A stretch of 64,000 nucleotides of DNA from Pleurostoma richardsiae (lineage: Eukaryota > Ascomycota > Sordariomycetes > Calosphaeriales > Pleurostomataceae): positions 620,001 to 684,000 of the forward strand of contig JANBVO010000018.1 of NCBI GenBank assembly GCA_030052745.1, in the 5' to 3' direction. Positions 4,648-53,862 of the stretch are shown here, piece after piece. A program made the position numbers and the translations under genes. The notes under the pieces were generated by a model. That model worked only from the letters and a program-made list of their open reading frames with translations. It was not told the DNA's origin and searched no databases. Position 1 is the stretch's first letter; every line of letters starts with the position of its first letter.

Positions 4648-7017
4648 TCAGTCCAAGCTAGGGAGAAGGTAAGCGTCAACGACGTTGAAACGTACCATGA
4701 CGTTTTTGTCCAGGGGAGAGTCCCCGAACTCTAGGCACCATAGGTCAGTCGTGTCGGGAGCCCAAGGTGGGACGCTCAAAAACTCAGCGACCGCCGGCGA
4801 GTCAATGGATCTAACATCCTGGTCTAGATCCTGTATCAGGGCCGGGCCGAGCTTGTCCGTCCCGGGGTAGCTGAGCCTGCGAGCTTTGCTGAGGACAACC
4901 TGCAACATGTGGACCGCTCTTTTTGCCTCTTGCGACTTGGCGGCCCACTGGACCCATATGTCGTATGATCCTGATAACGCGGCGACCGTTTCCTCCTTCA
5001 ACTCGGAGCTGTCGGAAGCGACCCCGTTGATATTCTGGTCCACCGCGAGGCAGAGGATGGTGGCTGCAAAAAGGAAGTCCTGCCTGATCATCGAAGAGAC
5101 TCGCCAGTACGCGTATATCTTCCCACCGGGTTGCGTCGCATGGTGTAGACGTGACTGGTGCTTAGATATCTCCAAGGCCGCGTCAATGCAATGACCTCGC
5201 GCAAGAGAATAACAGTCGCCAGTATCCGCGGCGAGCATGTAACCACGGTGTAGCCTGCATCTAGCCTTCTGGTAAAGCAACTCTATTATCAGCCTTCGGA
5301 GGAACTCCTTGGGTGTCTCCTCACTCGTTTCTGCGGTTTCCGACGACCGGTACTCGCTCGGCAGTCCGAGATAGACCTCCTGCAACTTAGTGAACAGCTC
5401 GAGGACTTCATTGTGCGAGGGTGGAGTTGCCAGGATAGTCACATCCGTGATGTCAGCGAGCATTGCGAGGAGCTTGTGCTTATAGATCATAAACGCCACG
5501 TTGTCCTCCGTTTCGCGACTACGCGGCAGCTCCTCCTCATCATAGCTGGACTCGTCTTCTAGCAGGACCCTGGGGAAGTTGACGTCGCAATGCTTCGGGT
5601 TGATCATCCGAGGGAGACCAAAGTGGGCCGCGACGATGACGTCGAGTTCGAAGATGACGAGCCACACTCTCCTTCGTATCTCCGCCTGGAACGCGGACAT
5701 GCGCGGGAAGTGCGAGCCATCTCGGTGGTAGCCCATGCGCTGAGCCATCCGCACAAGCGTACCGAGCATGACCCATATCCCGATCTCGGTGTCTTCGGCC
5801 GGGACGTAGTTGAGGTGAAGGTAGTGGAGTAACGTCTCTATCGTGAATGCCGGGCCCTTTGCATACTGTCCGAGCACCAGGCACTGGACGACTTTTGTTC
5901 TGTACAAGTCGACTAAGCGCTGCGGCTCGGCTCCTGAAGGTAGGGTGATGCCAGGGCCCTCAGTGTCTGATGGCGCAATGTCCCAATGCAGGGCGCCTAT
6001 ACCGAGCATAGCGAACAGCAAGCCAACCCACATAACCGGTGTGTCTGCGGGAGACTCCCAAAACCGAGAATACTCCTTCATGAAGGTGGGCTTGTGGATG
6101 AGGGCTAGCGCCAGTGGGTTAGCATGCCTTCGCCAACAACGTAAAGAATAATAGGTAGTAGAGGCCGAAACTCACTATGCGATATCGACAGCACAGCCCA
6201 GTATTTCTCCAGGAGCACATCTGCAAGAGGCTTTGGCGGTATAGCATCCAGAATCTCCCGGTGCTTTGCTTTCGCTTCCTCCGCGTGGGCAAGGTCTACT
6301 CGTGCAGGACCCAATCCTGGGTTCGCTGCCGGGCAAGGGCCGTCGGGCGATGGATTGGCTTCGCACTGGTCCCGGAGGTCTGCAATCTGATGAGTCTCGT
6401 TCAGTAAGCCTATAAGACGGCCCAGACTAGTATGCTCACCCGATCTAGGATGGCGAGCCAGTGGGCGCCTTCTACATAGTGTGCCTGAGAGTTCCCGAGA
6501 TCAAGGCATCCCATGTTGTCGGACACATGAGAAGGGTCCGAGATGCTTTGGCTCTGCATCCCTCCTCCGCATGGCGAGAACGAGGTGTGTGGAGACTGCT
6601 CTCGCTGTGTCGGCGATGCTGCACGGTCGCCAACGCGCCTCATGAGAGCCAGCACCTGGCGCTCCAGCTCGTCAATCCTCTCCTGGACACCCGTGGAATG
6701 TTTCACTCCGGGAGATCCTGCGCCCACCGCTGTGTGTTCCGGGTAGACGCATTTGTGCTCGAGGCCCTTCCTCACGCAGGTCTCGCAAGGGCGAGCGCGG
6801 TTGCACCTTGATCTGCGGGAACGGGCTGTGTAAGCAGGGACGCCGACGCACTGATGTGGAGCCGGGGGACAACCAACTTTCTCTTGCGGCACACGTTGCA
6901 GGACAGTTGCGGCTTGTCCCTGCGGCGCTTAGGGTCAACGGGCGGCTTGCGCGAGCCGCTCGGCCTCTCCTGCGGGTCGGAGGCCGCGCCGAGAGTCAAC
7001 GGAAGCCGAGTGTCCAT
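4648..7017 (-). CDS. Zn2Cys6 transcription factor with fungal-specific TF domain
   Basis: Nuclear DNA-binding regulator. Four exons by my reading: 7017-6878, 6812-6440, 6386-6176 and 6104-4648, summing to 726 codons plus stop. The first intron cuts the zinc cluster; splicing gives CNVCRKRKSRCNRARPCETC followed by a last Cys in EHKC, a CX2CX6CX5CX2CX8C binuclear cluster. A linker and short coiled coil (ERIDELERQVLALMRRV) follow. The third join makes TLIHKPTF, the usual entry to the fungal-specific regulatory domain, which fills most of the C-terminus. The third intron contains a CTAAC branch site. The start is taken at the ATG of MDTRLPL; an in-frame ATG at 7065 is possible. It is convergent with the PDR transporter. 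Target genes cannot be told from sequence. Confidence 0.85.
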
Positions 7018-8049: not shown

Positions 8050-9795
8050 CTACAACTTCCATCTCAACAAGGTGAAGCTTAGCCTTTCGAAAGTGTACGC
8101 CATGCCCTTCCCTCCCCACCGACTCTCCTTTACGCTGATCTTCTCATTTCCTTGGACGTTGGCATCCGTAGCCTGGAACTCCTTACCGCCAATGGTATAA
8201 ACTTCCGCCTCCTCACCGTCTAGAAGCTTCAAGCCGTCCAGCGTCGCCGTCATGTCCATTTTCTCGTCGGAATTCACAACAGCAACGTTCATCCACCCAT
8301 CTTCACTGACGGCCGCGCTCACATCCAGCTTCGGAACTCTAACGGTTGAACCAATCCAGTCCGGGAAGGTCTCGCCCTCGTACAGCCCCGTGCGAACGTG
8401 GACCGCGACAGACCTGCCGCGCATGTACTTCGAGAAAAGGAGCAGTGGGAAGTACGTTGTCTGCCTCCATAGGCCATTCGGACTTGTCATGAGGGGCGAG
8501 ATGACATTGACGCTCTGTGCAACCGTGGCCATGCCCAGCTCCCTTGACTGCCGGATGAAGATGTTAAGCCATATAGCAACCGCCAGGCCGTCGCTGAGCG
8601 AATAGACCTGCTCGGCGCCCTCGTTTCCGGGTGCCTTGACTGGATCCCATACGTTCCACTCGTCGAAGCAGATAGTCGGCCGCGTCTGGCTCTTTGGCTT
8701 CATATTAATGAGGCTCACATCAGGGTATGGACTCAAGTCGACCTCGCAGCGGGCTAGATCAATCAGTGAGGAGCAGACCTGGATAGATCGCTCGGCGCCG
8801 TATACGGAAGAGATATTCTTGTAGTGGCCGCTGCCCATGGAGTAGTAATGGATCGAGTGCATGTCCACCCAGCGGATGCACTTCTGGAGAACGTAGCGGT
8901 CCCAGTCAGACATCCCGTCCTTGCCGCAGAGGATCAGCTTGATGGAGGGATCCAGGAGTTTCAGCGCTAGAACGGAAGACAAAATGTCAGTCTTGCCAGT
9001 TAATGGCGGTAAAGGAAGTGGACGCCCCAACCTTTTGCCCACTGGATGGCCTTCTTCGCGTAGTCCTCCATCGTGTGCTGTTCCACCTGCCTGCGAGCAA
9101 TATTAGCCTCATTACGCTGAATATCAAACAGTCAATTCGTAGTGGCACTCACCATGGCCCCCACATCTCGTTACCGAGAGACCAGTACTTCACCCCGTAC
9201 GGCTTCTCGTGCCCATTCTGCCTCCTCAGATTCGCGTAGTATGTATCCTTGTCACCGTTGCAGTATTCCACCCACGCGAGCGCTTCATCGAGAGAACCAG
9301 TCCCCATGTTGAGGCAAAGGTACGGCTCTGCACCGACAGTCTTGATCCACTCCATGAACTCGTCCGTCCCAAAAGTGTTCGGCTCGAACCCCTCCCAGGC
9401 TAATTCTGGCCGTTTCGGCCGCTTGTTCTGGGGTCCAATGCCATCTTGCCAGTGGTATGTGGCACAAAAGTTTCCTCCCGGGTACCGCACGACCGGCACC
9501 TTCAGCTCGTCTTTGAGGCAGCCGATAACGTCGGTACGGAAGCCGTTGGAATCTCGGAGGCCCTGATTGGTGTTTTGGGGGTCATAGATTCCGCCGTAGA
9601 TGCAGCGCCCCATGTGTCTGTTAGGCCGAAACGGGCTGCTTAGCGCAATGTCTGGCAGAGGAGAATAGCTCAGGCAACCTACTCTAGAAAACCGCCATAA
9701 ATGAGAGGATCTATGTCCGCAATGGTGTGTGTCGGGTTGAATGAGATAGAGGGGGACTCATCCCCATCCTTAGGTAAGGCGGTCAGAGTCGTCAT
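8050..9795 (-). CDS. GH51 alpha-L-arabinofuranosidase, intracellular type
   Basis: Retaining glycoside hydrolase that releases terminal L-arabinofuranose from arabinan or arabinoxylan oligosaccharides. Four exons: 9795-9683, 9617-9153, 9090-9032 and 8966-8050; lengths total 1554 bp, 517 aa. The first join makes GGFLEHMGRCIYGGIY, the strongly conserved N-terminal GH51 block. The acid/base Glu is in SLGNEMWGPW and the nucleophile Glu in CFDEWNVWD. The C-terminus is the beta-sandwich domain. The start at MTTLTALPKDG matches intracellular GH51 proteins; an upstream in-frame ATG at 9864 would add 23 residues. No signal peptide is seen, so substrate probably enters as short oligosaccharides, which fits the sugar transporter in the same cluster. 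Its promoter carries three 25-bp repeat units. Confidence 0.93.
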
Positions 9796-10417
9796 GTCGC
9801 TGGTCTTGCGCCGTGAAGCTATGTGTCGCCAAGCCGATATGGGTGCAATGCGAAAGAGAGACAAGTGCTGTCAAGCAGACAAACCCTTTTGCTAACGGTT
9901 CGGGTGGCTGTGCTATTTCAACCTCGCGATGAGAAGATCTGCGTCCCACGACAAAAGGTGTCATTGCAGCGACGGTCATGACTCGCAGTCTTATTCTTAC
10001 TGATATGGTGGATTGTTTTTGGGAGACGAGCACCTGGCCCCTAATTGGAAACATTTGCAGTTCTCATGACTCTGAGACGACAGAGACCAGCGAAAGCGCC
10101 GGGGAGTGCCGGCCACTTACCGATCGGGGAGTACCGGTTGTTTGCCGACCGGGGAGTATCGGCGGCATTGCCGGGACTAGCTGCGCCCGGGTGGGGGGCA
10201 CTGAAACCGTCAGGCGACACTATACCGGAGACTACCTAGGCCAGGCACTACACGACAGATCGTCCGTCTTTAGATATGAGAATCTGCAGGAAAACGTACA
10301 CGTGTAGAGTCTTGTGGCGTTATCTTCGCCGGGTTGTTCAGCCGGGAGCGCTTATGCTAACATGGAGTCTCTCTCGTGGACTCTTTCTCGGCATGCACAC
10401 CGTTGTCTCATAAAGGG
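9796..10417. promoter_or_regulatory. GH51 gene promoter region
   Basis: Upstream region of the GH51 gene, also the 3' flank of the Zn2Cys6 regulator ending at 10418. Its only clear structure is the three-unit 25-bp array at 10099-10173, about 300-380 bp before the GH51 start codon. No coding sequence is supported. Confidence 0.6.
10099..10173. repeat. Three-unit 25-bp tandem array carrying a CGG-rich 14-bp box
   Basis: Three units start at 10099, 10124 and 10149, exactly 25 bp apart. Each opens with a 14-bp box: CCGGGGAGTGCCGG, TCGGGGAGTACCGG, CCGGGGAGTATCGG. The remaining 11 bp of each unit are less alike. The CGG/CCG ends suit zinc-cluster regulators, which bind CGG half-sites. The third box recurs exactly, on the other strand, in the regulator/transporter promoter at 12932-12945. 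Binding is inferred, not shown. Confidence 0.8.
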
Positions 10418-12569
10418 TCATACGGGCACGTCCTGGACTAATTCGTACAGTTGCTTCAGCCGCGCCAATAAGCCTGCGAGTTCAGGACTTTCCTCCTTCC
10501 AATACTCGATCAACTCGATCACGCTCGCCACTGCTGGCCTCCAACCACCCGGAAGCAGCTCGGCAATCTGAAGGCCGTCTCCCCCTTCTGCGGCCTCCTG
10601 TCGCGCCCGCATTGCTACGCCCAGGAGCTGTAGCGCACTGCGGGAGCATGTCCGGATCATCAACCACGTGCCCTGGTGGCGGTGGTAGAAGCCTTCCCTG
10701 CAGATGCCCACGCGGTATACCGCCGTGGCGAGCGCCTCCCGCGTGACCTCGAGGACACAGGAGCTAAGCGCACCCAGAGGTCTACTGCGCAAGACGACGG
10801 CCTGGACCGCGGGGAAGTAGACGACGTCGAGGATGTCGATGAAGTGGCCTCGGAGGATTCCGCGCAGTGGGTCACCCACCGGTTCGTCCACGTCGCGCGG
10901 GAACTTCATGGGCGGCGGTAGCAGGTCGTACCATGTGTCTAGCTTCTGCTTGTATTCGTCGACGTGCCTGCGAAAGTGCTGGCCTCCCTGCTCCTCGGTG
11001 GACCACCAGTCAGTGGTGTAGTACCATGACCCCCGCCAGTACCGCGAGGAGAGCGCATCGTTCATGATGCGGCGCAGTGCGATCTCGGACAGGTAGAAGA
11101 ACCAGCCCAGCTCGAGCCGGTCGCGCCCCCGCTCAGAACCTTCCCCAGGGACGGTCATGTGCGCATGGCTGGGTCCCGGCGGTGATGGGTACAGGTGAGG
11201 ATACCGCATCTCGTTGAGGCTCGAACCGGGCAGACCGAGCTCGGTGCGCAGCTCCCTAACCACGCTGTCAGCAGACTTACAATGTGTCTAACAAGGCGTC
11301 AGGAGAACTTGCAGTTCACTCTTCAGACAGCTCCAGTACAGGCTCTCTTCGACGTATTTTTCGTCATCCACGCCCTCGTGCGTGTGTAGACCAGGAGCCG
11401 AGAAGCGGTTGCGTCTCTCCACAACCCGCCCACGCGTTGCTAACCAGCCGACACACTGCGTGCCCGCCTGAGAGAATGCCTTCCACGCCGCCAGGATACG
11501 GAATGTGGTCATCAGGTATACAGCAGTCAGGAAGCTACACTGCATGGCAAGGAGCGAGTTCTCGTGATACACCATCCCAATGCGGCGCTGCGAGGCCTGG
11601 AAGTACATCTCGGCCCGCGCCAGGCGATCTGGTTGCCGGGAGAAGCCAGGTTGTGCTTCAGCTCGTATTGGAGGAGAGAGGACGCTTACAGCGCATATAA
11701 GAAGCTAGGATGATCAGCGGCTGTGATTCATTGCGCCCGTATGCTGTTTTACTCTAGGGATGCATCAACGCTGTTGAAGGGTTGAAAAGAGTTTAACTAA
11801 CCACAAGACACGTCGTGCCGTTCCATCGTAGCCCGCTGTCTACGAAGTCCTTGACCTGCTCCCACAGCCAGTCAACGTCGAAGATCGGATTCTTGATGTG
11901 ATTTGTTGCTAGGAAGTTGTCTACCAGCTGGGCCACCATCTCAGGGTCCACGTCAAAGATGTTGTCTCCCGTTGCTGGTCTGGCGACATCAACTTGTCCT
12001 AAGGTGGAAACTAGCGATGGAGGTTCCTCTAGCTCGAATACCGGCCATCGCAGGATATTTTCGAGCGTCATCTCTGCGCTCTCGAAGATGATGTCTGCTG
12101 TTGGCGGCTGATCATCTTCCGGAGGATACTGTGCTCTGTGGATGGGGTTTGTGCCATTGTCACTCCGCGGCGTCTGACCATGAGCAGACTCGGTCGGTCC
12201 CTCAGCGGCCGCAAAGGGACGGCGGGACACATCCTGGCTTAATAAGGTGGTGATATTATGCTCCACCTCGGCCAGTCTCTGGAGGATAGCCAGGCTGCCC
12301 CTATCAAGCTTCGAATGATCAGAAGCCGCATCGTCAGGATACTTGCATGCACCTCCCGTCGCCACGCAGAATCCACACACGGGCCTCTGATTATCGCACT
12401 TGGTCTTCCGCGCTCGGCAGACTATACAGGCCGTACCGGCCCGCCTCCGGGCGTAGGACGCCGACTCACGGGGCCCGGCCGTGCTAGTCGGCCTTGTGGG
12501 ACTAGCCTCCGGAGCACCGGGGCTTGTCGGGGTTATCCCGGGGGGAGGATGTCGCTGCATGGTGAACAT
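10418..12569 (-). CDS. Zn2Cys6 transcription factor of the GH51/transporter cluster
   Basis: Probable cluster regulator. Modelled exons: 12569-11802, 11720-11690 (31 bp), 11628-11309 and 11251-10418; lengths sum to 1953 bp, 650 aa. The zinc cluster near residue 45 reads CIVCRARKTKC then CGFC and GGACKY, a CX2CX6CX6CX2CX6C pattern. An acidic linker follows, then a fungal-specific TF domain (VDWLWEQV, AEMYFQASQRR, WYYTTDWWSTEEQ). The third intron (11252-11308) has a weak donor and is the least certain. Upstream in-frame ATGs at 12614 and 12674 exist, but 12569 is preferred because a motif copy lies at 12697-12710. It sits between the GH51 gene and the divergent sugar transporter, and shared boxes in both promoters suggest it may bind them and regulate itself. 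Confidence 0.82.
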
Positions 12570-12696
12570 GGCAGGGAGGGGGTCAGAGAGCAGGTTGGTG
12601 AGCAAGGGCTCCATTTCAAGGCCTCTGGTCCAGCCAACGCTCCAGCACTGGAGTGAGACGGAGGGTATCTGCAAAACTCACAACTCGATATCCTTA

Positions 12697-12710
12697 CCGA
12701 TACTCCCCTG
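12697..12710 (-). promoter_or_regulatory. Cluster box, regulator-proximal copy
   Basis: Reverse-strand reading is CAGGGGAGTATCGG, one mismatch from the third box of the 25-bp array. It lies about 130 bp upstream of the chosen start codon of the Zn2Cys6 regulator. Function as a binding site is inferred. Confidence 0.6.
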
Positions 12711-12931
12711 AGCTGGAATGCGCTGTCCCGATGCATGCACAAAATCTGGGGCATTCGGGGACCCCACGGAGTTTATGCCGCGCAAGCATGGGGGAGTCAT
12801 GACTCGATTGGAGGGGCTGCCCAGCCGCCCGGTCAAAGAAATCCCGGCTATTGTCCCAGATCGGAAGACCAGAGCGGAGTTTGGCGCCCACTAGCATCAG
12901 ACTACCGGGCAGCCACTCTGCAGTCCCCACA

Positions 12932-12945
12932 CCGATACTCCCCGG
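12932..12945 (-). promoter_or_regulatory. Cluster box, transporter-proximal copy
   Basis: Reverse-strand reading is CCGGGGAGTATCGG, identical over 14 bp to the box at 10149-10162. It lies about 280-295 bp upstream of the sugar transporter start codon, in the divergent promoter shared with the Zn2Cys6 regulator. Function is inferred. Confidence 0.65.
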
Positions 12946-13225
12946 TGAACGTCGGTGACTCGAGGACGTCGGGTGCGTGACGCCCCCAGCTTTTTTTGCG
13001 GAGTCCCCCCCCGGCTGGAGGAGGTCGGGTCCGGGGTCGAGACAGGTCGACTGGGGATTCTAGGATCAGGACATGATCACCCCGCGATCGGATACAGGAG
13101 TGTGGACGGCAGGTATATATCTTGACGAGGCTTCCTGCTATGTCGCCTGAGCCGTTTGGCTTGAGCTCTCAGGGCATCGCAGACTCTAAGCCTACTTCTC
13201 AGCAACTCCCCCTTCACTTTTCATT

Positions 13226-14936
13226 ATGACAACCACCATATCTCCAAAGGAAGAGACCGAGCAGGGGTTCGAGCACGTCCAAGATGCCGCGGACGAGCTC
13301 GGCCACCTGGCCAACCTCCATGAGCACAAGGTCTCGCCTATTCAGGCTCTACGAAAGCGCCCCCTCGCGGCAGCATGGGCCCTCTACGCCATCTTCACCT
13401 GCCTCCTTGTCTCCTTCGAGAACCAGGCCTCTGGCATGGTGCTCAGTATCCCCGAATTCCGAAAGGACTTCGGCAGGGAGTACGCCGGCAACTACGTGCT
13501 CGACGCCGACTGGCAGTCAGCCTTCTCCGGTGGCCCAATTGCCAGTTCAGTCATCGGCACGTTCGGCGCGGGATACTTCGCCGATAAGATCGGCCGGAAA
13601 CCCCTACTCATTGGGGCCATCATCGTGTCGTTTGCAGCCGTTGCAATGGAGTTTGTGGCGACGACGAACGCTCTGTTCTTCGGGGGCAAGTTTGTCAATG
13701 GGTTTGTGACTGGTATCATCCTTTCCGTCTCGGTCACGTACGTCGGCGAGGTGAGTGAACCTTGAACCCCGTGACGGACATACTCGATTTGGCACACCTT
13801 GCCATCAACCTTCCCCTACCGTCCCGACGACGCACTGACACTGCTATTCTCCTCAGGTAACTCCTCTGGCACTCCGCGGCATCTTCACCTGCCTCAACGC
13901 CCTCATGATGACGATTGGCCCTCTCACGAGTGCTATCATCATCAACTACACCGGCGACTATTCCTCCCGATGGGCCTATCGCGCCGTCTTTTGCTCCCAG
14001 TTCGGGTTCGCTGCCATCGCCGCTATATTTGTCCCCTTCATGCCAGAGTCCCCCATCTGGCTCATCAGCGTCGACAAGGACGACAAAGCGGTCAATGCTT
14101 TGCGTCGCCTCGGCTACAGGGACCATGCCGACCTGACTTTACGCATGTCTCAGATACGCACTACCCTCAACGAGGCTAAGGCAGAGGTTGCTGGAGCTAC
14201 CTACGTGGACTGCTTCCGCCGTTCGAACCTGCGCCGCACGATTATATCCGTGATGCCCCTGGCAATCCAGGCCTTGAGCGGCGTCTACTTCATAGCTTCT
14301 TACGGCACTTATTACATGCAGCTCGCTGGCTACGGCACCTCAGAGAGCTTTAAGCTGCAGATCGCGCAGCACGGATGCGCTATGGCCGGCAACATCTGCT
14401 CCTGGTACCTCATTGATAGGGTCGGACGTCGGCCGCTGATGTTCTGGGGCACAATGTCTATCACGATCATCCTACTTATCACCGCCAGCCTAGCAGCCGA
14501 GGGCAGTCACGGGGCCATCAAGGGGTCTGTCGCATTCATCGTGATGTACAACTTCTTCTACAACATCTCCATCGGTGCGACCGCCTACACTCTACTCTGC
14601 GAGGTCGCGACGTCGCGACTCCGTGTCAAGACCATCTCCATCGGTGTTGCTCTGCAGTACCTCATCTATCTCGTCTGGGCCTTCGTCATTCCCTACATCT
14701 TCAACCCGGACAAGGCCAACCTCGGCGCCAAGACAGCTTACATCTTCGGCGCCTTTGGCCTGTTGTCCCTCGTGTACCTGTGGTTCTACCAGCCGGAAAC
14801 GGCGGGCAGGAGCTTCGAGGAACTGGATGAGCTCTTCATGAAGGGCATCAGCGTCAGGGACTTTGGCAAATTCAAGACAGATGCGGAGCTCAAGGGAGAG
14901 CAAGCTGAAGAGATCACGCAGAAGACCGTAGACTAG
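13226..14936 (+). CDS. MFS sugar transporter, alpha-glucoside/maltose-permease type
   Basis: Twelve-helix sugar:proton symporter of the plasma membrane. Two exons, 13226-13750 and 13857-14936, joined as YVGE/VTPLALRG; 534 aa. Sugar-porter motifs are present: DKIGRKP in loop 2-3, PESPIWL after helix 6, DRVGRRP in loop 8-9 and PETAGRSFEELDELF at the end. The N-terminal block with ENQASGM and SIPEFRKDFG resembles MAL-type fungal permeases more than hexose carriers. It is transcribed away from the Zn2Cys6 regulator from a shared promoter that holds two copies of the cluster box. With a cytosolic GH51 next door, an arabinose-containing oligosaccharide is a reasonable substrate guess, but sequence alone does not show it. 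Confidence 0.92.
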
Positions 14937-43724: not shown

Positions 43725-45918
43725 TTATGCCTCCATCTCAGCAAAGTTATTCAACAAAGTCTCAACCCTCAGCAGACCCAGATTCGTCAACCCCTTCATC
43801 CCCGCCGCCCCATTCGCCGCGACGCGGTTCGCCCACCGCCACCTCTTCACCAAGCCCTGGAGCTCCGCGCGCTCCTCGCTGAAGCCGTCCCCGCCCGTCC
43901 TCCCCGGCCGGGACACGACGTGCAGCAGGTGCACCATGAAGGAGCCCGCCATCGCGAAGCCTGCGCGGCTCCAGCTGTGCCAGAAGGCGTTCCACTGCAC
44001 GTCCGTCAGCGTCTCGACGAACTCGACGAACTCCCTCACGCACAGCAGGGCGCCTCGCGTGACGGCGGTGGCGCCGTCGAGGAGGGCGGTCGACTGCTGT
44101 CGCTGGTGCGAGCTGCTCAGCGGACGGAGGAGGGCGCGGAAGAGGCTCATGTGCGTGACGATGTAGGAGAGGTGGACCGACGCGTTGCCGTCTAGGTCCT
44201 GCTCACCGAAGCCCATCCGAGACGAGGAGTGGGCTTCTTTTGAAGTGTTAAATTTCAGGGTTGAGGGCAGTTGGTCTCTCCAGTCCTTGAGTCTCACGCG
44301 GATGGGCCGTGCCGCGTCGAGTGAATACGGCAGATCCGCTGATGTCCGCCTGCTCCCACGGACTGTGTAGTAGGTTTCCCGGACATCGCATAATATAGCT
44401 GTTAATGTGGTTAGGTAGTAAAAGTGGGATTTTGTCTGCGGTGCGTCCGAGAGAGAGTCGTCGATGTCGTCCGGTCGAAGATCGAGCACGTCGTAGTCCT
44501 CATCGTGCAAGTGGCTCGGCATCCCGCGTGCGACGGCGATCCACTTCTCCATCGTCCACAAGGACCACCATAAGCGCCGGCGAAGCCGTCTCTCCCAAAG
44601 AGGAACGGAGTTCCAGGTTGACGGATCACGATGTAGACCTATTGTCTGCCCGGCTGCAAGGGTGCTGGAAATCAGACTCCAGGTAAAGGCCGTGTCGGAG
44701 AGGTAGTAGTTCGTTGGTAGCCTCTGAAGCAGGAGCAGTCCAGCTTGTACCGTCGTCAGAGACGGTGCGTGCAGTTCCTGCGACAGGCCGAGCCAGCACA
44801 GGCGGTACAGCTGCTCGCTCGACGGTGGATGCAGGAGCAGATGAACTAGCTTTTCGTCGTACATCAAGAAGGGAAGAGCTGTTGCGCATATGGCAGTCAG
44901 CAGAGCTAGAGACATATTACTCAGCTCGTCCGGACTGTCTGGTATCTGATGGCGTGAGAGGACCGGAAAGTAAGGGTCAACGAATCGCGCGTAAAGCTGG
45001 ATTAAGTTCCAGGCAGCCGCTGGGCTCAGCAGTTTCCACAGTTCTGTCCAGGCGTTATCAACCTCCTGGGAGTCAAGCCTGGGCTCCGCCCGCTCGATCA
45101 GGTTCTTGTCGGTGATGCCAAATAACGTGGGCTGGTCGACGACTTTGTCTTCAGAGATTGCAGGGCGGCCCAGTCTCCGGTATTTCAAGCCGCTCACTCG
45201 TGGTTTCGTTACGTTGCGCTCGTCATAGGCTTCCCGGCTCAGTAGATACACATCAGAGACTCCCGTCGGTCCTATGTAGAAGCTAAATGCACCTGGAAGA
45301 AACTCGAGAGATTCAGCTCGTGTCTGCTGGGCTGTTTGGCTATGCTGTACGTCTTGAACCAGAGGAGAGGCGACTGAGCCCGTCGACGAGCTGCTGGATG
45401 TTCTTGGGGCCGACAAAGCCTCGGGTGGCTCAGGGACGGTCCCAAACGGATCATGAAACGCTCCAAAGGTCTCTAGAGCAAATGGTCCTGGGTCCGACGC
45501 GAAGTTATCGTGGATCCCCGTGCCCGCGTGATGTTCGAAGAAGAGTGCATGGCTCAGAGGGGAGAAGGTGAGAGCGTTGCCTTCCTCGCTCCATCCGCTG
45601 ATAACAAGTCAGTTCTGTTCCACTCTCCCACTGTATCATGGTCACCGGCACCTACCTTTGACTCTGGCCCCCATCAGCCCGCCCGGAACCTGGCCGACTT
45701 GGTCTCTTCCGCGGGCCGGGGCCTTCCTCGAAGGTACAAGAAATGCCCTTCTTTGAGCACCGGCGGCAGGGAGGACAGACTGGCATGTCACAGGCCACTT
45801 TCCTCTTGCGGCAGGAGTCGCACGGCCTTGACTTGCGGGACTTATAGATCCGGCCTGCGGAAGCGGAGGTCATTTCCATTCCCGCCGTCGTGGTCCCGAC
45901 AGGCGATAAGGCCGGCAT
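43725..45918 (-). CDS. Zn2Cys6 transcription factor
   Basis: Nuclear regulator. Two exons, 45918-45656 and 45597-43725; 711 aa. The zinc cluster near residue 32 is CDSCRKRKVACDMPVCPPC followed by RCSKKGISCTF and a GPGPRKRP tail. The spacing is not the strict textbook one, and the cluster followed by PRKR resembles the Dal81/TamA group of nitrogen-catabolism regulators, though I would not name it. The large C-terminal half is a fungal-specific TF domain: LYARFVDPYFPVLSRHQIP, LHRDPSTWN and LRRRLWWSLWTMEKW are its usual landmarks. It lies between the SDR/alcohol dehydrogenase/aldolase group and the anion transporter/TauD pair, and so is a candidate controller of either set. Confidence 0.87.
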
Positions 45919-46537
45919 AGGCTCACAGTTCTATAGCAGGGAGTCAGATAGCTGCAGTAGCGGACCCGCTTACTGGGCGCGAGTCCAGCGCTCGGTAGGG
46001 GGGCAGAGCACGAAATATGGTTATGGATTCGAGGTCGAGGTGCGATTCCTCTGAGGGAGATGAGAATCCGCCGAGCTTATCTTTCTTCTACGGCAGATTG
46101 GCTCCGAGGTGTGGGTACGGGGGAGACTCCACTTGGTTCTGGTCTTAGACCCCTGCACTAGACTCCGATCATTGCACCGATGACGACGGAGTATTCGAAG
46201 CCCTGACTCAAGGCAGGCACGTAGTCTTTATAAAGAGAGCTTTGTGTATTGATCGTGTAAATACCACGAGCGTGGTTGCAGCTCTAAGTACCTAGGTTCA
46301 ACTGGCAAGACTCACAACAGTCCAAAGTTGTCAATAGTCTAAACTCCTCGCCACGTAATACCATCATAAGTAACTCATACCCAAGAATGACACTACTAAG
46401 TCCGTCTCGCGAGTCTAGGAAGTCTATTGTTACTGCAACTCAAAGAATCCCTCGATCTAGCATGAAACACCGTCCGTTTAGCCCCGGAACCCAACCCTCC
46501 TCACAGAAATAGATGATATTCTTTGGCCTACGTGCCT
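45919..46537. other. Intergenic: regulator promoter and transporter 3' flank
   Basis: Promoter side of the Zn2Cys6 regulator. No gene, RNA or repeat seen. Confidence 0.5.
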
Positions 46538-48252
46538 CTAGGTTGTGTACTTGAACCCCTGGTTCTGCTTATCCGTCAGATCCAGCCAGTCCTGCTCGGC
46601 AGCGAGACGACTCTCGATCGCCGCGGCCCTCTTCTTGTTATCCATGTGGCAGAGAGCACCGTAGGCGAGGATCGCGAAGATGGCCACGATATAGCAGACG
46701 ACCATGGCCACCATGCCGCCAGTGTATGCGGGCGCCTGGTCGGCGCGGAAGGTCTGGGGCCCAATGATGTTGCCCGTCGTCCAAGAAATGTAGAACCATG
46801 CGTAGAGGACAATCCTGGTTCGCGGAGATCAGATACTGCATATCGTACATGCGGGAGGAGCCCCAAACTTACTTCTTCGTGTGCCCGGCGATGTTTGCTT
46901 GGTAGATTGATACAAGCGTTACGTAGGGAGCCCAGTACGTGTAGAGGATACTGTGTAATTATCAGTAAGACTGACGAGGTATGCCTATCAAACAAGGGGA
47001 TACTCACTAAAGACCAACAAGTTGTCCTGCAAGGTTGTCTCTGGGCAGCTTGTAGCACAGGCAGGCACCAAGGAGAGGCAGCAGGATGGAGGCTGCAACC
47101 ATAACCGTGCGGTACCGCCGGGTGGTTGAGGCAAGGTAGGAAAGGGCCAGTCCAGATAGAGTGCTCATAGCGCCAGGGGGCATGGCAAGGAGGGAAGTCT
47201 GCAGAGGGCTGAAGCCGAGACCGGAGATGATCAACGTGTTGAAGGTGGTGAGACCGCCGTTCGGCACCTGAAGAGCGATGATAGAGATCCAGATGAGCCA
47301 GGTCTTGGGGTCGGCAAAAGCCTCCCAGATCTGCTCCTTCTTGATCTTCTTGGTCTCAACACCAGTGTTGTCAGCCGCCTTCCTCTGGATAATGATGTAC
47401 TTCTCTCGCGGGGAGAGCCTCTTTGCCTCCAGAGGGTTGTTCGGCAGGAAGGTGAAGACAACGCCGGCCCAAAGGATTGTGAAGGCGCCGAGGGTGAGGA
47501 AGATGATCTTCCACGGGGCGAACGGGCCATTATAGTAGCTGACGGTCCAAGCCACGAATCCGTTGATGATGGGGGCCACGACGTTAAGGATGATGCTGTT
47601 GCGACGGGGCTGTTCCTCCGGCCGGTACCACATGGAGACGACGAGCGTGACCGCTGGGATCAGCAGCGCCTCGAATCCACCCAGGAGGAAGCGGCAGACG
47701 AAGAGGCTGCCGAAGCCGGTGCAGGCAGCCATGCACATCTCCAAGATGCCCCAACACAGCACGTTCAGGGAGAAGAAGGTCACGGCTGGCATCTTCTGGA
47801 GGCAGTAGGCGGCGGGGCCCATGAAGAGCAGGCCACCGAAGAAGGGCGCACTACCAATCCAGGAGTACTCATCACCAGTCAAGTGAAGGTCCTTCTTGAT
47901 GTCGTAGATGGCGGCAGCCGAGATAGCTGTCTTGTCCAGGCCAGACAAAGTCGCGCACACAAAGAGCTGCGGCATGTTAGCTCAAAGAGCACTTCTCAAG
48001 AGGAGCGTCTAGGCATTGAGAACGTACGATGGGGATGAGCCACCAGTCGACCTTGCGCATGAGCTTCTTCTCCTCCTCCTTCGACCAGCCGTCGGTGCCC
48101 ATCTGGTCCGCATAGTCGGCGATGATCTGGGCGGCAATGTCCAAGTCCTTCGCATTGCCGGCTTTCACTGCCTTTACGGCAGCCTCGACGGTCAGAGTTT
48201 TCGGCTCCTCAGCAGCCACCGTGGCTGCGGGCGAGATGCTCTCCGTGCCCAT
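46538..48252 (-). CDS. MFS anion:cation symporter, Dal5/allantoate permease family
   Basis: Plasma-membrane importer of organic anions. Four exons: 48252-48028, 47966-47008, 46950-46873 and 46814-46538; lengths total 1539 bp, 512 aa. The family N-terminus KKLMRKVDWWLIPI leads into LFVCATLSGLDKTAIS at the first join. Next come SWIGSAPFFG, a PAVTLVVSMWYRPEEQPRRN loop and LSPREKYIIIQR, all typical of Dal5/Tna1-like carriers. About twelve hydrophobic helices are seen. It is transcribed divergently from a TauD-type dioxygenase, sharing 743 bp of promoter. In yeast the Dal5-family protein Soa1 takes up sulfonates and the TauD-family Jlp1 breaks them down, so this pair may do the same. That role is inference. 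Confidence 0.9.
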
Positions 48253-48995
48253 GTTGAGATTCAAGCAGAATTGAATAGGGGAGGGGCGGCTCAAGGGGCT
48301 TTCCGGGCCGAGACAGAATTCCGGCAGTAGCTACTGGTCACTATTCTGACGTCGGAAGTGTAGGCCGTGAAACGAGAGCCGCATGGGAAGAAAATCAGCC
48401 GACATTGGAGGATTGTGGCCCAATTTGAATATCGATCCCCAGGGCCTCCATGCACTCCCGCATCGTGGGCCACAGGTTGAAGTTCCGAGATAACATTTGG
48501 CGAGCGCGCTATTGGGCAGAATGTCCCGAGTCAAGCAGCCCAGGGCGCCTTCGGTAGGCCGCTCCAGGGTCCCGCTAAGAAGAAGCATGCCGGGGCGCCG
48601 GTAGCAGTCTAAGATAAGAATTTGCTGTCAAAATTACACCTCCGACGTAGTGATAAGGATGGAGGAGGCGTTGGCCGCGCGGTGGATAAGCACAAGGGCG
48701 GCCAGGTCTAACCGTTAGACTTGGCCGCTGTCCCCACCGGCTGTTCGCCGCTCCAGCCCGTTCGCCGGGGGAGCTGGCCGGGATTCGGCAGCCGCTGGCT
48801 CGGAGGGCCGCACGGCGGAAGGACGTGCCGCCGAATGCAGAGCTCGAAATATCTCATAAGCTCGTTGCAGCAAAGACATCTCTGAGACCAGTCGCACCGG
48901 GGTTGGACCATACCATCTCGAGCAAAAGCAGGAGACAGGAGACACTATAGACACCACACACCACTTTGACGCCACCGTAATTAGTGTATTGGATC
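48253..48995. promoter_or_regulatory. Divergent promoter of the anion transporter and TauD dioxygenase genes
   Basis: Shared 743-bp control region. It holds an inverted repeat at 48706-48720 (GTCTAA, spacer CCG, TTAGAC) that could be a regulator site. Confidence 0.55.
48706..48720. promoter_or_regulatory. Perfect 6-bp inverted repeat with 3-bp spacer
   Basis: GTCTAA-CCG-TTAGAC, a perfect dyad within the divergent promoter of the anion transporter and TauD genes. It could bind a dimeric regulator. Chance cannot be excluded for a dyad of this size. Confidence 0.45.
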
Positions 48996-50525
48996 ATGAT
49001 TGCGAAGGACGAACCAGTCGTCGCCCCGGTCAACGGCAAGGCCAAGACCCAAGGCCCTCCTCTCTATCCGGACTACCTGCGTACGCATCCATCAACTCCC
49101 CTCGCACTGTTAGCCAGGCTGTTTTCGAATCTTTGGCTAACACTATCTATCTAGCACACTACGATCCCCTGGAGAAGGTCGAGCCCGTTGGCCCCTTTGA
49201 GCATGATGAGCCCGGCCTTCGTGCAGACCCTGCTCTGCCCAACCTCCTGAAAGGCGCCACCAAGGTGTTCGAGGTCAGCCCTCATTGTGGCACTGAGATC
49301 CAGGGCGTCCAAATTGTCAGTAAATGCCCGAAGACTTCTCCTAGTTGTTTACTTGCTAACAAGGACGTATGTAGTCTGAACTGTCAGATGCCGGTCTCGA
49401 CGAGCTGGCGCTGTTGTGCGCCCAGCGTGGCTGCCTCGTCTTCCGTGACCAGGAGTTCGCAAAGATTGGCTTCGAGAAGCAGAAGAAGATCGCATCGTAA
49501 GCTGGCCAGCCTCTCTCCGAGCACTAAATATTATAAGAACTAACAGTAGCAGACACTTCGGTATGGCAGGGCCTTGACGATGCTGTTTACCATGTGTACT
49601 GACCAGATCAAGGACCGCTTCACAAGCATGGATGGATGCCGCACCCCAAGAACGGCCCGGAGGAGTTCGTCATTGTGTACGACTCACGGGAGTTAGTCTC
49701 ACCGTTTCCCCCCTAACTTAGAGCCAGCTGCTGACAGGCCACAGCGACCTGAGGATTCGCAAGTCCTGGTCGAGAAAGAGCCCGATCCAGTTCCATGTCG
49801 ACCAGGTCAGTAACATCGAGATGGTCTTCAACCAGTGGGCTCAGCTAATAACCTGAAACAGTCTCCCGAGCTGCAGCCACCTGGTGCGACCTTCTTCTGC
49901 ATGCTCGAGTCACCCCCCGGAGCTGGTGGCGACACCATTATCTCCAGCGTGAGCCGAAACCCCCGCCCTGTAGAAACCTGCGGCGCCCAGACGGTCTAAC
50001 ATGGACAATCCACAGATGACCCGTGCCTTCGAGCGCCTCTCCCCCTCCTTCCGCAAGCGCCTCGAGGGCCTCAAGGCGATCCACACGACCGCCAAGCCCA
50101 TGGAGCGCGAGATCCGCGATAACGGCTCCTCCGCCGTGCTGCGGCGGCCCATCTCCAAGGCCGTGCACCCCGTCGTGACCGTGCACCCCGTGACCGGCCA
50201 GAAGGCGCTGTTCGTCAACAGCTCCTACACGCAGCGCATCGTGGGCTGGGACGACGACGAGTCTGACTGCCTGCTGGGCTTCCTGTTCGACCACGTCAAC
50301 CGCGGGCAGGACTTCGCCTGCCGCGTGCGCTACGAGCCGGGCACCGTGGTGGTCTGGGACCAGCGGGTCACGCAGCACAGCCAGACGCTCGACTACGCGC
50401 CCGGCGACAGGCGGCACGCGTTCCGGCTGACGCCGCTGGCGAACGTGCCGATCCCGAGCTTGGTGGAGGAGGATGACGGGCAGTGCGCGGAGGAAGAGGA
50501 GAGGGTGATGCTGGGGCTGTGCTAG
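48996..50525 (+). CDS. TauD/Jlp1-type Fe(II)/2-oxoglutarate dioxygenase
   Basis: Non-haem iron dioxygenase, likely sulfonate/taurine type, which splits sulfite from an alkylsulfonate using O2 and 2-oxoglutarate. Eight exons: 48996-49080, 49155-49315, 49375-49496, 49553-49560, 49613-49691, 49745-49805, 49862-49948 and 50016-50525; 1113 bp, 370 aa. The fourth exon is only 8 nt but is needed to give SHFGPLHKHG. The iron ligands are the H-V-D of FHVDQSP and the His of TQHSQTLDY; the oxoglutarate-binding Arg is in RRHAFR. GCLVFRDQEF is the family's N-terminal landmark. It shares a promoter with the Dal5-family transporter. Related TauD-fold enzymes act on herbicides or sulfate esters, so substrate is open. 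Confidence 0.92.
49553..49560 (+). other. 8-nt microexon in the TauD-type gene
   Basis: Sequence ACACTTCG between an intron ending GTAGCAG (with CTAAC upstream) and one starting GTATGG (with TACTGAC near its end). It supplies the His-Phe of the conserved SHFGPLHKHG block and restores the frame between the neighbouring exons. Confidence 0.7.
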
Positions 50526-50808
50526 GTGCGGCGGGGAGTTATAGAGATGTGTTTGTCGGATGTGCGGTAGTCAGTTCACTGGAGACAGGACTCATTAAGT
50601 AAAAAGTATATTATCAATGTAGTCATATCCGCGTTCATAAACGTGCTGTGCCGAAGAGTATAATGCAGCCCGCGAACCAAACGCCGTAGCCATGCATCGT
50701 GATCCTCAGATATCATTTCCCATCCACTTCCCTCTCTTATACCTGTTCAATCCCTCCATCTCTGCCGGCCCCAACCGTTCCGTCTTCGTGAGATCCTTCC
50801 CTGCGTAT

Positions 50809-52617
50809 TCACAGGCTCACCTGACTGCTCCTCTCGACGTGGTTAACGTCTAGTTGCTGGTTGAACTTGCTCATGATGCTGCCCTCCACAGTCTCCTCGA
50901 AGACATCCACCTTGGTGTCCGCGAACTTACGCGCGCTGATACCACGCTCGAAGAGCACGTCCAGCTCAGCAAAGGTGCGACCCTGCGGCTCCGGCACGCG
51001 GAAATAAGTGTAGATGATGCACAGGAAGCAGATGCCGCCCCAGAAGAAGCCGGCGTAGTTGCTCCAGTTCCAGGCGCCGGGGTTGAGCATGTAGGGAGTG
51101 AGGACGCTGCAGATGATGCCCACGATGATGTAGAGGACACGGCCCAAGACGACCGTCTTGATCTGCAGCCGGCGGGTGGAGAGCTCAGAGACAAGTGAGT
51201 AGCAGACGGTGCCGACGGTCAGCTGGTAGCACAACGCCCAGACGAGCATAATGCTTCCAGTAGCGATGGAGCCCTGGTCCTTATGCGACTCGGGTACAAG
51301 ACCTAGGAAGCCCAGCACGAAGAGCATAGCACAGAGACCGCACAGGCCGTAGAGGTAGAGTGAGCGCCGACCAATGCCCAGCGTCATCAGTCCCCACGCG
51401 CCAATGACACCAACCATGTTGATGCCATACTGGCCGAGGGCGAAACCATAGGCGCTGCGGTCGCTCAGACCGGCCTGCTCGAGGAAATAGGTGGAGTAGT
51501 TGGAGAAGGAGTTGCCGCTGAGGTTCTGAATTGCCCAGACCATGCAGACGATCTCAGTGCGGCGCAGGTCGGTTCCCTTGAAGCAGTCGAGGTAGCTGGC
51601 TCCGCGGGTCGTCTGGGCCTCGAGGGCAGTCGTGTGCACCATCATAGCGACAGTCTCGTCAGCGTCGAAGTCCGAGTCGCTGCGCTTGCTGGTCAACCGC
51701 AACAGAGACTTCTTAGCGTCATCAACACGGCCCTTGCGCACAAGCCACCATGGCGACTCGGGAGCGAACATAATGCCGACCAGCAACGGGACGGGCCACA
51801 TCCACTGCAGCGCGTAGGGGATGCGGTATGCCCACTGGTCGTCACGGTCGAGCATGCCCATGATGACGCCGATGCCGAGCAGCTGGCCGATGCCCCAGCA
51901 AGCATTGACATAAGTGGTCAGATAGCCGCGCATGGCGACGGGGCAGACCTCAGAGGCGTAGGTGATGGTCAAGGTCTAGGAAACACGTTAGACGGGTTGC
52001 GCGCCAAGTGGGGCGTGCTCGCATGTTGGGAAATTGGCTCTTACCTGGAAGATTCCCCAGGGGATGCCGCAGAGGATCTCGGCGACGAGCAGAGACTCGA
52101 CGTTCTGGGCGGTGAAGAAGATGGTGATGAAGCCGACGAGGCAGGCCAGGCAGACCATGACGGTGCGGCGGTAGCCGAAGCGCTCCGAGACCCAGCCGTT
52201 GATGAGCAGGCCGATGAGCTCACCGCAGTTGGCGCCGTTGCTGAGGCCACTCTGCCAGCGGGCAGGGACCTGCCACGAGCCATCGGCCAGCTGCTCGCCG
52301 TACTTGCGGTTGAACTGGTCAAAAGCGTAGAAGTTGTTGATGAGGCAGACGTCGTAGCCCTCCATGACAATACACGTGCTGATGAGCACGCTCCACGCGA
52401 TGGCCTTGGGATACAGCTTGATACCCTCCAGCAGGGTCATGTTCTGCTCCTTCTCAGTGGCCGCCTTGGCGAAGCCGATGATGGAGTGCATGGCCTTGGG
52501 GTCCTCGTTGTCCACGTCCGCAACGCCGCCCTCCAGGCTCTTCTCGGAGGCCAGGGCGGGCTCAATGCCCTCCTCCTCGGCCTTGGAGACGATATCCTCA
52601 GGAGTCTTGGAGGCCAT
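50809..52617 (-). CDS. MFS sugar transporter, maltose permease type
   Basis: Alpha-glucoside:proton symporter of the plasma membrane. Two exons, 52617-52045 and 51975-50809; 579 aa. The long hydrophilic N-terminus is followed by KAIAWSVLISTCIVMEGYD, a hallmark of fungal MAL-type permeases. Sugar-porter motifs: SERFGYRR in loop 2-3, PESPWWLVRKGR after helix 6, and PEPQGRTFAELDVLFERGISARKF at the C-terminus. The N-terminal half also has RWQSGLSNGANCGELIG. It is divergent from a ten-exon Zn2Cys6 regulator 1.2 kb away. It is a different subgroup from the transporter at 13226-14936. Substrate is probably maltose or a related disaccharide (inferred). Confidence 0.93.
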
Positions 52618-53862
52618 GTTGGGTGCTAGAGCAAAGGAGTCGTTGAAAGGGGTAACGAGACGAGAAGGAGGAGGGAAGGAGAAGAGAGGTCAGCTGATGA
52701 TGTGCTGAGGAGGCGTCTCGCGAACTCTCTGCGAGAGATAACGTGCTGTCGCAGGGACAGATAAGGGAGTTCGCTGCCGCAGAGGGGGTGCCTGGTGCCT
52801 GAGTCTCTGGCCTCTGACTGAGCGAGGATGTCCGAATGGGGAGGGGATGCAGACGATCTGTTCAGCTGATCGAAGGGGATACCGCCAGGTAAATATCCTC
52901 GAGCTGATCGCGGTGTGTCGGGAACGCGGTTGACCGCCAACGGACAAAACCTCCTGAAGCTCCCTCTAGAAATTTCTGTGTGCTGAACCTAGGCCCCGTT
53001 CATTTATCTCGACCTGGGCCGGCTCGGCCAATGACCGTGAGCTGTTCCGGAGGGTGGAGAGGCGCGATGGCCGTTCGGTCAATCAGAGGCGTCGGAAGCG
53101 GCGTTAGCGGCTGACGGCGCGGTCGGAGCGGGGTCCAAGGGAGGGGTCACATCGCATCGGGTCGAGGGGATGGAGGGGTGCCGGCTCGGGCACGTGAACC
53201 TTCGCAAAACAACACACCCACCGCAACCATCCAGAATCGGCGTTCGTGCCCATCTTTTCCCCGCACTAGGCTCGGAATGACGCAGCGCCATGCGCCAACC
53301 CCCGGAAGTGTGTGCCCCTGTGCCTCGTCAGCCATTCACACTAGAGGTGAACCCATCGAGCCGTGCCTCTCGCTAGAAACTGTCGAGGCAGTGATTGGCG
53401 AGCCGAGAGGTGCGGCCGAGTCGAGCATTGGGCACGGCATGTCTCCGCCCAATGGGATCGGCCTCATTTGCGCGATAAGCCGACCGGTTCGAGACTCTGG
53501 GTGCGGGGTAGAGCAGGGGGTGATGGGGACGCAGAGCTCGGCATCGCTCTTCTGGCCACTCAGGTGCTGTTCCGGCCGGTTGTTCCTTCGCCGGCGCTGC
53601 CTGTCGCCCGTGCATGCCGTTCCTGCCAGGTTTTAGCTGCAATCTCCAACCAACGGGAACTTTATCTGCAGCCGGGCCTCTGCGCATCGCCATATTACCA
53701 ACCTGGGGTTTTTCGCACATTTTTGCCTTCTTCACCACCAGATTTTGTCTTTTCTCCCCGGTTTCCCGGATCTGGCGGTTGCACTGTGGCCATGATTCCC
53801 GTCATCCTCTTCTCTTCCGCCCGAGATTGCTGCTCCTGACCCAAACCCGCACCCGAGCTTCG
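52618..53862. promoter_or_regulatory. Divergent promoter region of sugar permease and Zn2Cys6 regulator
   Basis: A 1.2-kb gap between the start codons of the two genes. Open frames within have no family features. No repeat or RNA gene was seen. Confidence 0.45.

What the first reader, a model, noticed from the sequence alone, without database searches (positions are those of the whole stretch)
10099..12945. A cluster-specific 14-bp box, tandemly arrayed at 25-bp spacing, links GH51, regulator and transporter genes
CCGGGGAGTATCGG-type boxes occur three times upstream of the GH51 gene (10099, 10124, 10149; exactly 25 bp apart) and twice in the divergent regulator/transporter promoter (12697, 12932). 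Two copies are identical over 14 bp and I saw none elsewhere in the window. Zinc-cluster proteins bind CGG half-sites, and the gene between the two promoters encodes one. This suggests a small self-contained regulon for uptake and hydrolysis of an arabinose-containing oligosaccharide. A 25-bp period is about 2.4 helical turns, so adjacent dimers would lie on roughly opposite faces of the DNA.
Basis: partly seen in the sequence, partly recalled or inferred. Interest (0 to 1): 0.76.

Follow-up and report, generated by a model that had tools for sequence, protein, structure and literature searches.

The report
Fungal sugar-cluster regulator's likely DNA box
Three neighbouring genes of a wood-living fungus, probably for taking up and cutting an arabinose-containing sugar, share a short DNA box that is most likely where the cluster's own regulator protein binds; this is an ordinary kind of gene circuit, but a matching box in a sister cluster of the same genome makes the case unusually good for sequence evidence alone.

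Summary
Five boxes sharing GGGGAGTRYCGG lie at 10099, 10124, 10149 (+) and 12697, 12932 (-), three of them in an exact 25-bp array. The genome is Pleurostoma richardsiae (39.4 Mb). The core occurs 20 times in it (reversed-pattern control 32), five of them here; the other 15 are scattered single copies. The gene trio (Zn2Cys6 regulator, GH51, MFS sugar transporter) is conserved: 15 of 21 other regulator orthologues show at least one partner gene linked to them. A paralogous MFS/regulator/GH51 cluster on contig C105 carries one box (1 mismatch) 297 bp before its GH51 start, against 306 bp here; its other promoter has none. Two more distant regulator/transporter pairs carry related boxes, strongly on C46, weakly on C115. 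Best reading: the autoregulated operator of the cluster's regulator, an asymmetric SGG-N5-CGG site. Binding, substrate and the box in other species' DNA are untested. The 25-bp spacing turns sites by 137 degrees, not to opposite faces. New member of a known kind.

The parts
10099..10112 (+). box 1 (CCGGGGAGTGCCGG), GH51 promoter array
10124..10137 (+). box 2 (TCGGGGAGTACCGG), GH51 promoter array
10149..10162 (+). box 3 (CCGGGGAGTATCGG), GH51 promoter array
10099..10163 (.). tandem array, period 25 bp, 2.6 copies
12697..12710 (-). box 4 (CAGGGGAGTATCGG), divergent regulator/transporter promoter
12932..12945 (-). box 5 (CCGGGGAGTATCGG), divergent regulator/transporter promoter
8050..9795 (-). 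GH51 alpha-L-arabinofuranosidase, 517 aa, four exons (9795-9683, 9617-9153, 9090-9032, 8966-8050)
10418..12614 (-). Zn2Cys6 regulator, 680 aa in the deposited model, three exons (12614-11802, 11704-11313, 11255-10418), second intron GC-AG
13226..14936 (+). MFS sugar transporter, 534 aa, one intron (13751-13856)
13114..13119 (+). TATATA element before the transporter

Best explanation
The box, core GGGGAGTRYCGG (read towards GH51 and the transporter: CCGRYACTCCCC), is the operator of the cluster's own Zn2Cys6 regulator. Inferred mechanism: when an arabinose-containing inducer is present, the regulator acts on three boxes about 300 bp before GH51 and two boxes in the divergent promoter, turning on the enzyme, the transporter and itself (positive feedback). 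The site is an asymmetric, direct-repeat-like SGG-N5-CGG element, not a palindrome. The GH51 array is probably a local 25-bp duplication whose boxes were kept while the linkers drifted, giving stronger or cooperative control of the enzyme gene. Shown: positions, concentration in this cluster, conserved gene trio, a box at the same place in the paralogous cluster, related boxes in two related regulator/transporter pairs. Inferred: binding, activation rather than repression, inducer and substrate.
For: Five copies in 1233 bp of promoter, 15 scattered copies in the rest of 39.4 Mb. Three identical cores have unrelated flanks, so they are not recent copies of one another. Gene trio: of 21 other orthologues, 5 show all three genes linked and 10 more show the regulator linked to one partner; locus tags of regulator and transporter are consecutive in Neonectria ditissima, Fusarium sp. 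AF-6 and Zalerion; in F. keratoplasticum regulator and GH51 are annotated as one protein. C105 paralogous cluster, same gene order: its only site within 2 mismatches in 60000-69452 is a 1-mismatch box in the regulator/GH51 gap, 297 bp before the ATG, same orientation to GH51; 17 of 4000 background windows and 9 of 2000 shuffles do as well. Divergent pairs of the same regulator family: C46 has 3 sites within 2 mismatches (6 of 4000 windows; 9 of 2000 shuffles), C115 has 2 (59 of 4000; 97 of 2000).
Against: No binding or expression data. No DNA of orthologous clusters was reached, so conservation across species is untested. The C105 transporter/regulator promoter has no site; the C65 regulator locus, which holds only about 0.5 kb before the gene, has none; the unclustered GH51 paralogue on C54 has only one 2-mismatch site, at background rate. 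C115 is weak (97 of 2000 shuffles). The direction of the box relative to transporter and regulator is not the same in C46/C115 as here. The two promoters also hold three inverted CGG-N8-CCG sites (0.5 expected) and 18 CreA-type SYGGRG sites (6.4 expected), so other elements could carry part of the control.
Confidence: 0.74

Rival explanations
1. The boxes are operators of another transcription factor, not of the neighbour: a separate zinc-cluster or G-rich-binding factor sets the level of the cluster, and the neighbour regulator uses other sites such as the inverted CGG-N8-CCG pairs at 10160, 10389 and 12767.
For: Three CGG-N8-CCG sites in the two promoters where about 0.5 is expected (6 against 1.08 when both strands are counted). 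No binding data tie the box to the neighbour.
Against: Box or box-like sites recur beside three other regulators of the same family, and the box is otherwise scattered and single in the genome, which a global factor would not predict. The CGG-N8-CCG sites share no longer sequence with one another.
Confidence: 0.15
2. The boxes are CreA (carbon catabolite repressor) sites: SYGGRG lies inside the box.
For: SYGGRG (recalled) matches inside 3 of 5 boxes; 18 such sites in the two promoters, 6.4 expected.
Against: Two boxes (10124, 12697) do not match, and CreA explains neither AGT nor the invariant CGG. CreA may still act beside the box.
Confidence: 0.06
3. Chance and local duplication: the array is a tandem repeat and the other two boxes are coincidences.
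For: Copies 1 and 2 are clearly duplicates (18 of 25 positions equal, all 7 differences transitions).
Against: Identical 12-bp cores with unrelated flanks in the divergent promoter 2.5 kb away; 0 of 150 random segment pairs give a family of 4 or more; a 1-mismatch box in the matching place of C105.
Confidence: 0.05

Closest known systems
Zn2Cys6 regulators of plant-sugar genes such as RhaR/PDR-1 (CGG-X11-CCG, TCGG-X11-CCGA; passages of PMC5469009)
   Same: Zn2Cys6 regulator family serving pectin/hemicellulose sugar genes; CGG-bearing sites in target promoters
   Different: The site here is an asymmetric 12-mer with one certain CGG and a GGG (relatives: CGG) left half, five bases apart, in direct orientation; no TCGGN11CCGA in the two promoters
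Fission yeast Pho7 (outline and abstract of PMC5559640)
   Same: Zn2Cys6 domain with an asymmetric 12-nt site; two sites in one promoter
   Different: Other sequence, TCG(G/C)(A/T)xxTTxAA, and a phosphate regulon
HAP1/CYP1 (PDB 1hwt, 1qp9, 1pyc, 2hap)
   Same: Closest solved zinc cluster by sequence; binds direct repeats CGGNNNTANCGG (recalled); 4 of 5 boxes read GGGNNNTANCGG
   Different: Only the zinc cluster matches (E 1.5e-5); no CGGNNNTANCGG in the promoters; unrelated gene context
CLR2 of Trichoderma next to a sugar transporter (passages of PMC7607812)
   Same: Fungal regulator of carbohydrate genes lying next to a transporter gene
   Different: Another regulator; no shared box in the passages seen
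GH51 arabinofuranosidases with solved structures: 8i0a, 3ug3, and the intracellular exo-alpha-1,5 enzymes 1pz3 and 5o7z
   Same: Same enzyme family over most of the length; GNE and DEW motifs present (their catalytic role is recalled)
   Different: Fungal; place in the cell not tested, and PMC5469009 lists N. crassa GH51-1 among secreted enzymes

Membership tests
Cluster-encoded Zn2Cys6 regulator with its own operator | Zn2Cys6 DNA-binding domain | tested here: met
   PF00172, E 3.5e-8, residues 61-94 of P0001
Cluster-encoded Zn2Cys6 regulator with its own operator | regulator and target genes conserved together | tested here: met
   15 of 21 other orthologues show linkage to at least one partner; 6 show none in the rows listed
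Cluster-encoded Zn2Cys6 regulator with its own operator | motif shared by the cluster's promoters and scarce elsewhere | tested here: met
   5 of 20 genome copies within 1233 bp of promoter
Cluster-encoded Zn2Cys6 regulator with its own operator | motif recurs in related clusters | tested here: inconclusive
   Same genome only: C105 GH51 promoter and C46 yes, C115 weak, C105 divergent promoter no. Other species not reached
Cluster-encoded Zn2Cys6 regulator with its own operator | regulator binds the motif and controls the genes | not testable with these tools
   needs gel shift and expression
CreA site | SYGGRG (recalled) in every box | tested here: not met
   3 of 5 boxes
XlnR/AraR target | GGCTAAA or CGGNTAAW (recalled) in the promoters | tested here: not met
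   0 in both promoters
HAP1-type site | CGGNNNTANCGG (recalled) | tested here: not met
   0 matches; GGG stands in place of the first CGG in 4 boxes
GH51 arabinofuranosidase | PF06964 and PF22848 domains | tested here: met
   above cut-off in the two large exon frames
GH51 arabinofuranosidase | activity on arabinofuranosides, intracellular place | not testable with these tools
   no assay and no signal-peptide predictor; N-terminus judged by eye only
MFS sugar transporter | PF00083 domain | tested here: met
   E 9.7e-58 on the large exon frame, 3.9e-12 on the first exon frame

The most novel reading that the evidence does not exclude
A whole family of fungal sugar-cluster regulators uses one inherited asymmetric operator, SGG-RnTRY-CGG (SGG-N5-CGG), whose left half switches between GGG and CGG as the regulators diverge. 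Paralogous clusters in one genome (C47, C105, C46, C115) would then be a natural series for reading how a Zn2Cys6 domain selects its left half-site, and the box could predict the target genes of these otherwise unnamed regulators.
Probability: 0.38. Interest if true: 0.55.

Novelty: new member of a known kind. Interest (0 to 1): 0.42.

Why it matters
If true, it gives an operator, a target set and an architecture to a conserved regulator family whose members carry only generic names in the table. The family and its gene partners occur from Nectriaceae to Aspergillus, so one gel shift would help annotate many genomes, and four related clusters in one genome allow a direct test of how zinc-cluster site preference drifts.

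Tried and rejected
A plain CGG pair (everted CCG-N8-CGG or direct CGG-N7-CGG) as the definition: rejected, since box 12697 lacks the left CGG. Known motifs (all recalled except TCGGN11CCGA): GGCTAAA, CGGNTAAW, TCGGN11CCGA and CGGNNNTANCGG absent; CGGN11CCG 4 (1.33 expected), CGGN8CCG 6 (1.08 expected; three distinct places), CGGN8CGG 3 (0.99 expected), CCCNCCAAT 1 (0.02 expected) were seen and not pursued further. A simple RKTK-to-RRTK switch in the zinc cluster as the cause of GGG versus CGG: C47/C105 have RKTK and C46/C115 RRTK, but database relatives of the C46/C115 group also have RKTK, so it is not claimed. Family test at 2 mismatches: not discriminating. The wider pattern SGGRnTRYCGG was written after seeing the sites and is not used as a test, which uses only the C47 box, is. 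Orthologous DNA in viral contigs and genome contigs: no relatives. Tandem pairs of GGGGAGT elsewhere in the genome: 14 of 16 matches are not ours, and in none of those does the first copy continue as nnCGG. Copy C35:680834 near the 54% transporter paralogue (685210-686938) lies in a stop-free frame about 4.4 kb away and was set aside. Paper searches; in the listings I saw nothing on this box or cluster. Read: outline and abstract of PMC5559640, passages of PMC7607812 and PMC5469009; other papers only as listings.

Mended on re-checking: the genome control for GGGGAGTRYCGG is 32 in all (16 per strand); my notebook entry says 7 of the other copies lie in open frames, the output shows 8; CGG-N8-CCG was added as a rival site.
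Full report
WHAT WAS CHECKED. The five boxes are at the stated places. Inside the window GGGGAGTnnCGG has five matches, all of these. Tandem Repeats Finder, which knows nothing of the motif, reports the 25-bp array at 10099-10163. As a test without the motif I took the largest family of 12-mers within one mismatch in the two promoters (622 and 611 bp): 5 members; of 150 random segment pairs of the same sizes in the window none reached 4 and 7 reached 3. At two mismatches the test does not discriminate: 11 of 150 reach 5.

WHERE IT IS. The regulator is identical to a deposited protein of Pleurostoma richardsiae on a contig of 691,216 bp, which is the length of contig C47 of the window's own assembly. 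The window is C47:620001-684000 of 39.4 Mb.

GENOME-WIDE. GGGGAGTRYCGG: 20 copies, 5 of them here; the pattern read backwards has 32 (16 per strand). GGGGAGTATCGG: 5 exact copies, 3 here; with up to one mismatch 132, against 192 for the backward control; the call listed 100 of the 132 places. Of the 15 copies elsewhere, 8 lie inside stop-free frames of at least 150 aa. Pfam scans of 20 frames, at least one from each of the 15 loci but not every frame, found S-adenosylmethionine decarboxylase, a GFO/IDH/MocA oxidoreductase, C2H2 zinc fingers, a tRNA-splicing endonuclease subunit, a cation efflux protein and a weak TPR match; no glycoside hydrolase, sugar transporter or Zn2Cys6 cluster. So the box is not generally repeated; it is concentrated here. 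The other tandem pairs of GGGGAGT in the genome do not continue as nnCGG in their first copy.

THE GENES. GH51, 517 aa, with PF06964 and PF22848; closest solved relatives 8i0a, 3ug3 and the intracellular exo-alpha-1,5-arabinofuranosidases 1pz3 and 5o7z. By eye the N-terminus has no signal peptide; no predictor was used, and PMC5469009 lists N. crassa GH51-1 among secreted enzymes, so the place in the cell stays open. The transporter has PF00083; its relatives are named maltose permease, hexose transporter or general substrate transporter. The regulator has PF00172 as its only Pfam match.

THE TRIO IS A CONSERVED UNIT. A tree of 48 regulators (45 of the 116 database hits plus C105, C46 and C115) has an orthologue clade of 22 rows, support 100/100. 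Of the 21 orthologues other than our own, 5 show all three genes (Dactylonectria estremocensis, Xylariales sp. PMI_506, Thozetella, Cephalotrichum gorgonifer, Zalerion maritima), 10 show the regulator with one partner (P0003, P0005, P0009, P0010, P0011, P0012, P0013, P0014, P0015, P0028; P0011 by fusion) and 6 show none (P0004, P0006, P0007, P0008, P0017, P0020). The tables show one contig per cluster row and only the best 120 of 440 and 120 of 274 rows, so these are lower bounds. Locus tags of regulator and transporter are consecutive in Neonectria ditissima, Fusarium sp. AF-6 and Zalerion. In F. keratoplasticum regulator and GH51 are annotated as one 1122-aa protein, which fits the same head-to-tail neighbours.

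THE BEST NEW EVIDENCE: A SECOND CLUSTER IN THE SAME GENOME. Contig C105 has a sugar transporter (frames 60426-62074, -), a regulator (about 62.7-65.5 kb, +) and a GH51 (66018-67970, +): the same order and directions. Its transporter is not among the 89 matches of the search with a relative of ours, so it seems to be of another group. In 60000-69452 the only site within two mismatches of GGGGAGTRYCGG is GGGGGGTATCGG at 65710-65721 (-), in the regulator/GH51 gap, 297 bp before the GH51 ATG; our nearest box core is 306 bp before its ATG, and the orientation relative to GH51 is the same. A 511-bp background window has a site within one mismatch in 17 of 4000 draws, shuffles of the gap itself in 9 of 2000. 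The C105 transporter/regulator promoter has none, which speaks against a full copy of the circuit.

MORE DISTANT RELATIVES. Two divergent regulator/transporter pairs, C46 (regulator 37% identical) and C115 (32%), carry GCGGAATGTCGG, GCGGATTGTCGG and TGGGAATGCCGG (C46), and GCGGAGTGTCGG and GCGGAGTGTCGC (C115). Counting sites within two mismatches of our box: C46 3 (6 of 4000 background windows, 9 of 2000 shuffles), C115 2 (59 of 4000, 97 of 2000); gene borders in these two regions were estimated. Without the motif, the one 11-mer family with three members in the C46 region is CCCGACATTCC and variants; the C115 region holds CGACACTCCGCG twice, among other two-copy words. The pattern covering all four clusters, SGG-N5-CGG, was written after seeing these and is a proposal. 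The C65 regulator locus has no site, but only about 0.5 kb before that gene was held. The genome count of GCGGANTGTCGG could not be had: the machine did not answer.

HOW IT MOST LIKELY WORKS. The regulator binds SGG-N5-CGG as an asymmetric dimer, or as a monomer with extended contacts (inferred; Pho7 is a zinc-cluster protein with an asymmetric 12-nt site, abstract of PMC5559640). The nearest boxes lie 306 bp (GH51) and 283 bp (transporter) before the start codons, and 83 bp before the regulator's own, so common control of enzyme, uptake and regulator, with feedback, is the simplest reading. Activation is assumed from the habit of the family. The array: copies 1 and 2 differ at 7 of 25 positions, all transitions, 1 in the box and 6 in the linker; copy 3 keeps the box (1 difference from copy 2) while 10 of 13 linker positions differ. 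This fits a local duplication with the boxes kept by selection. At 10.5 bp per turn the three boxes face 0, 137 and 274 degrees, spread round the helix, not on opposite faces.

RIVALS. CreA-type hexamers lie in 3 of 5 boxes but explain neither AGT nor CGG; such hexamers are nevertheless in excess in the two promoters, 18 against 6.4 expected. XlnR/AraR, TCGGN11CCGA and HAP1 consensus sites are absent. Three inverted CGG-N8-CCG sites (10160, 10389, 12767; about 0.5 expected) could be sites of the same or another zinc-cluster protein. Chance or duplication alone does not explain identical cores with unrelated flanks 2.5 kb apart, nor the C105 site.

NOVELTY. A zinc-cluster regulator with its own boxes in a small catabolic cluster is a known kind. 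New here are the box, its array, its recurrence beside paralogous regulators, and the conserved trio. My paper searches listed nothing on this box or cluster, but the library lacks most subscription journals.

Noticed in passing
tree rows P0013, P0014, P0015, P0028; GH51 row P0122: Four Aspergillus regulators form one group sister to Pleurostoma inside an otherwise Sordariomycete clade (95/93), and the one Aspergillus GH51 of that clade in the tree is likewise sister to ours (85/73, moderate): a candidate horizontal transfer of the cluster into Aspergillus.
   Followed up: partly
window 11312-11256, - strand: The regulator's second intron is GC-AG (GCAAGT...GGTTAG); the deposited protein agrees with it.
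   Followed up: yes
window 12807-12815, - strand: One CCCNCCAAT (GaaR-type galacturonate element, recalled) in the divergent promoter, 0.02 expected; it might tie the cluster to pectin.
   Followed up: no
P0024 (Trichoderma arundinaceum): A 39% relative of the regulator is annotated as one protein with an inosine-uridine nucleoside hydrolase domain (PF01156), perhaps neighbouring genes fused in annotation: related regulators may serve ribosides or arabinosides.
   Followed up: no
P0073 (Claviceps maximensis): A 28% relative of the regulator is annotated with a sugar-transporter domain (PF00083) in front, again suggesting regulator/transporter neighbours in the wider family.
   Followed up: no
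window 4648-6928, - strand: Frames with a Zn2Cys6 cluster and a Fungal_trans domain, probably another regulator, on the GH51 side of the cluster; relation unknown.
   Followed up: no
window 43725-61254: A second possible carbohydrate region: Fungal_trans regulator, MFS protein, sugar transporter, myo-inositol oxygenase and a GH31 hydrolase.
   Followed up: no
L020 (C2:486884-486895): Single box GGGGAGTGTCGG about 220 bp from the upstream end of a GFO/IDH/MocA oxidoreductase frame; the one outside copy near a plausible sugar gene.
   Followed up: no
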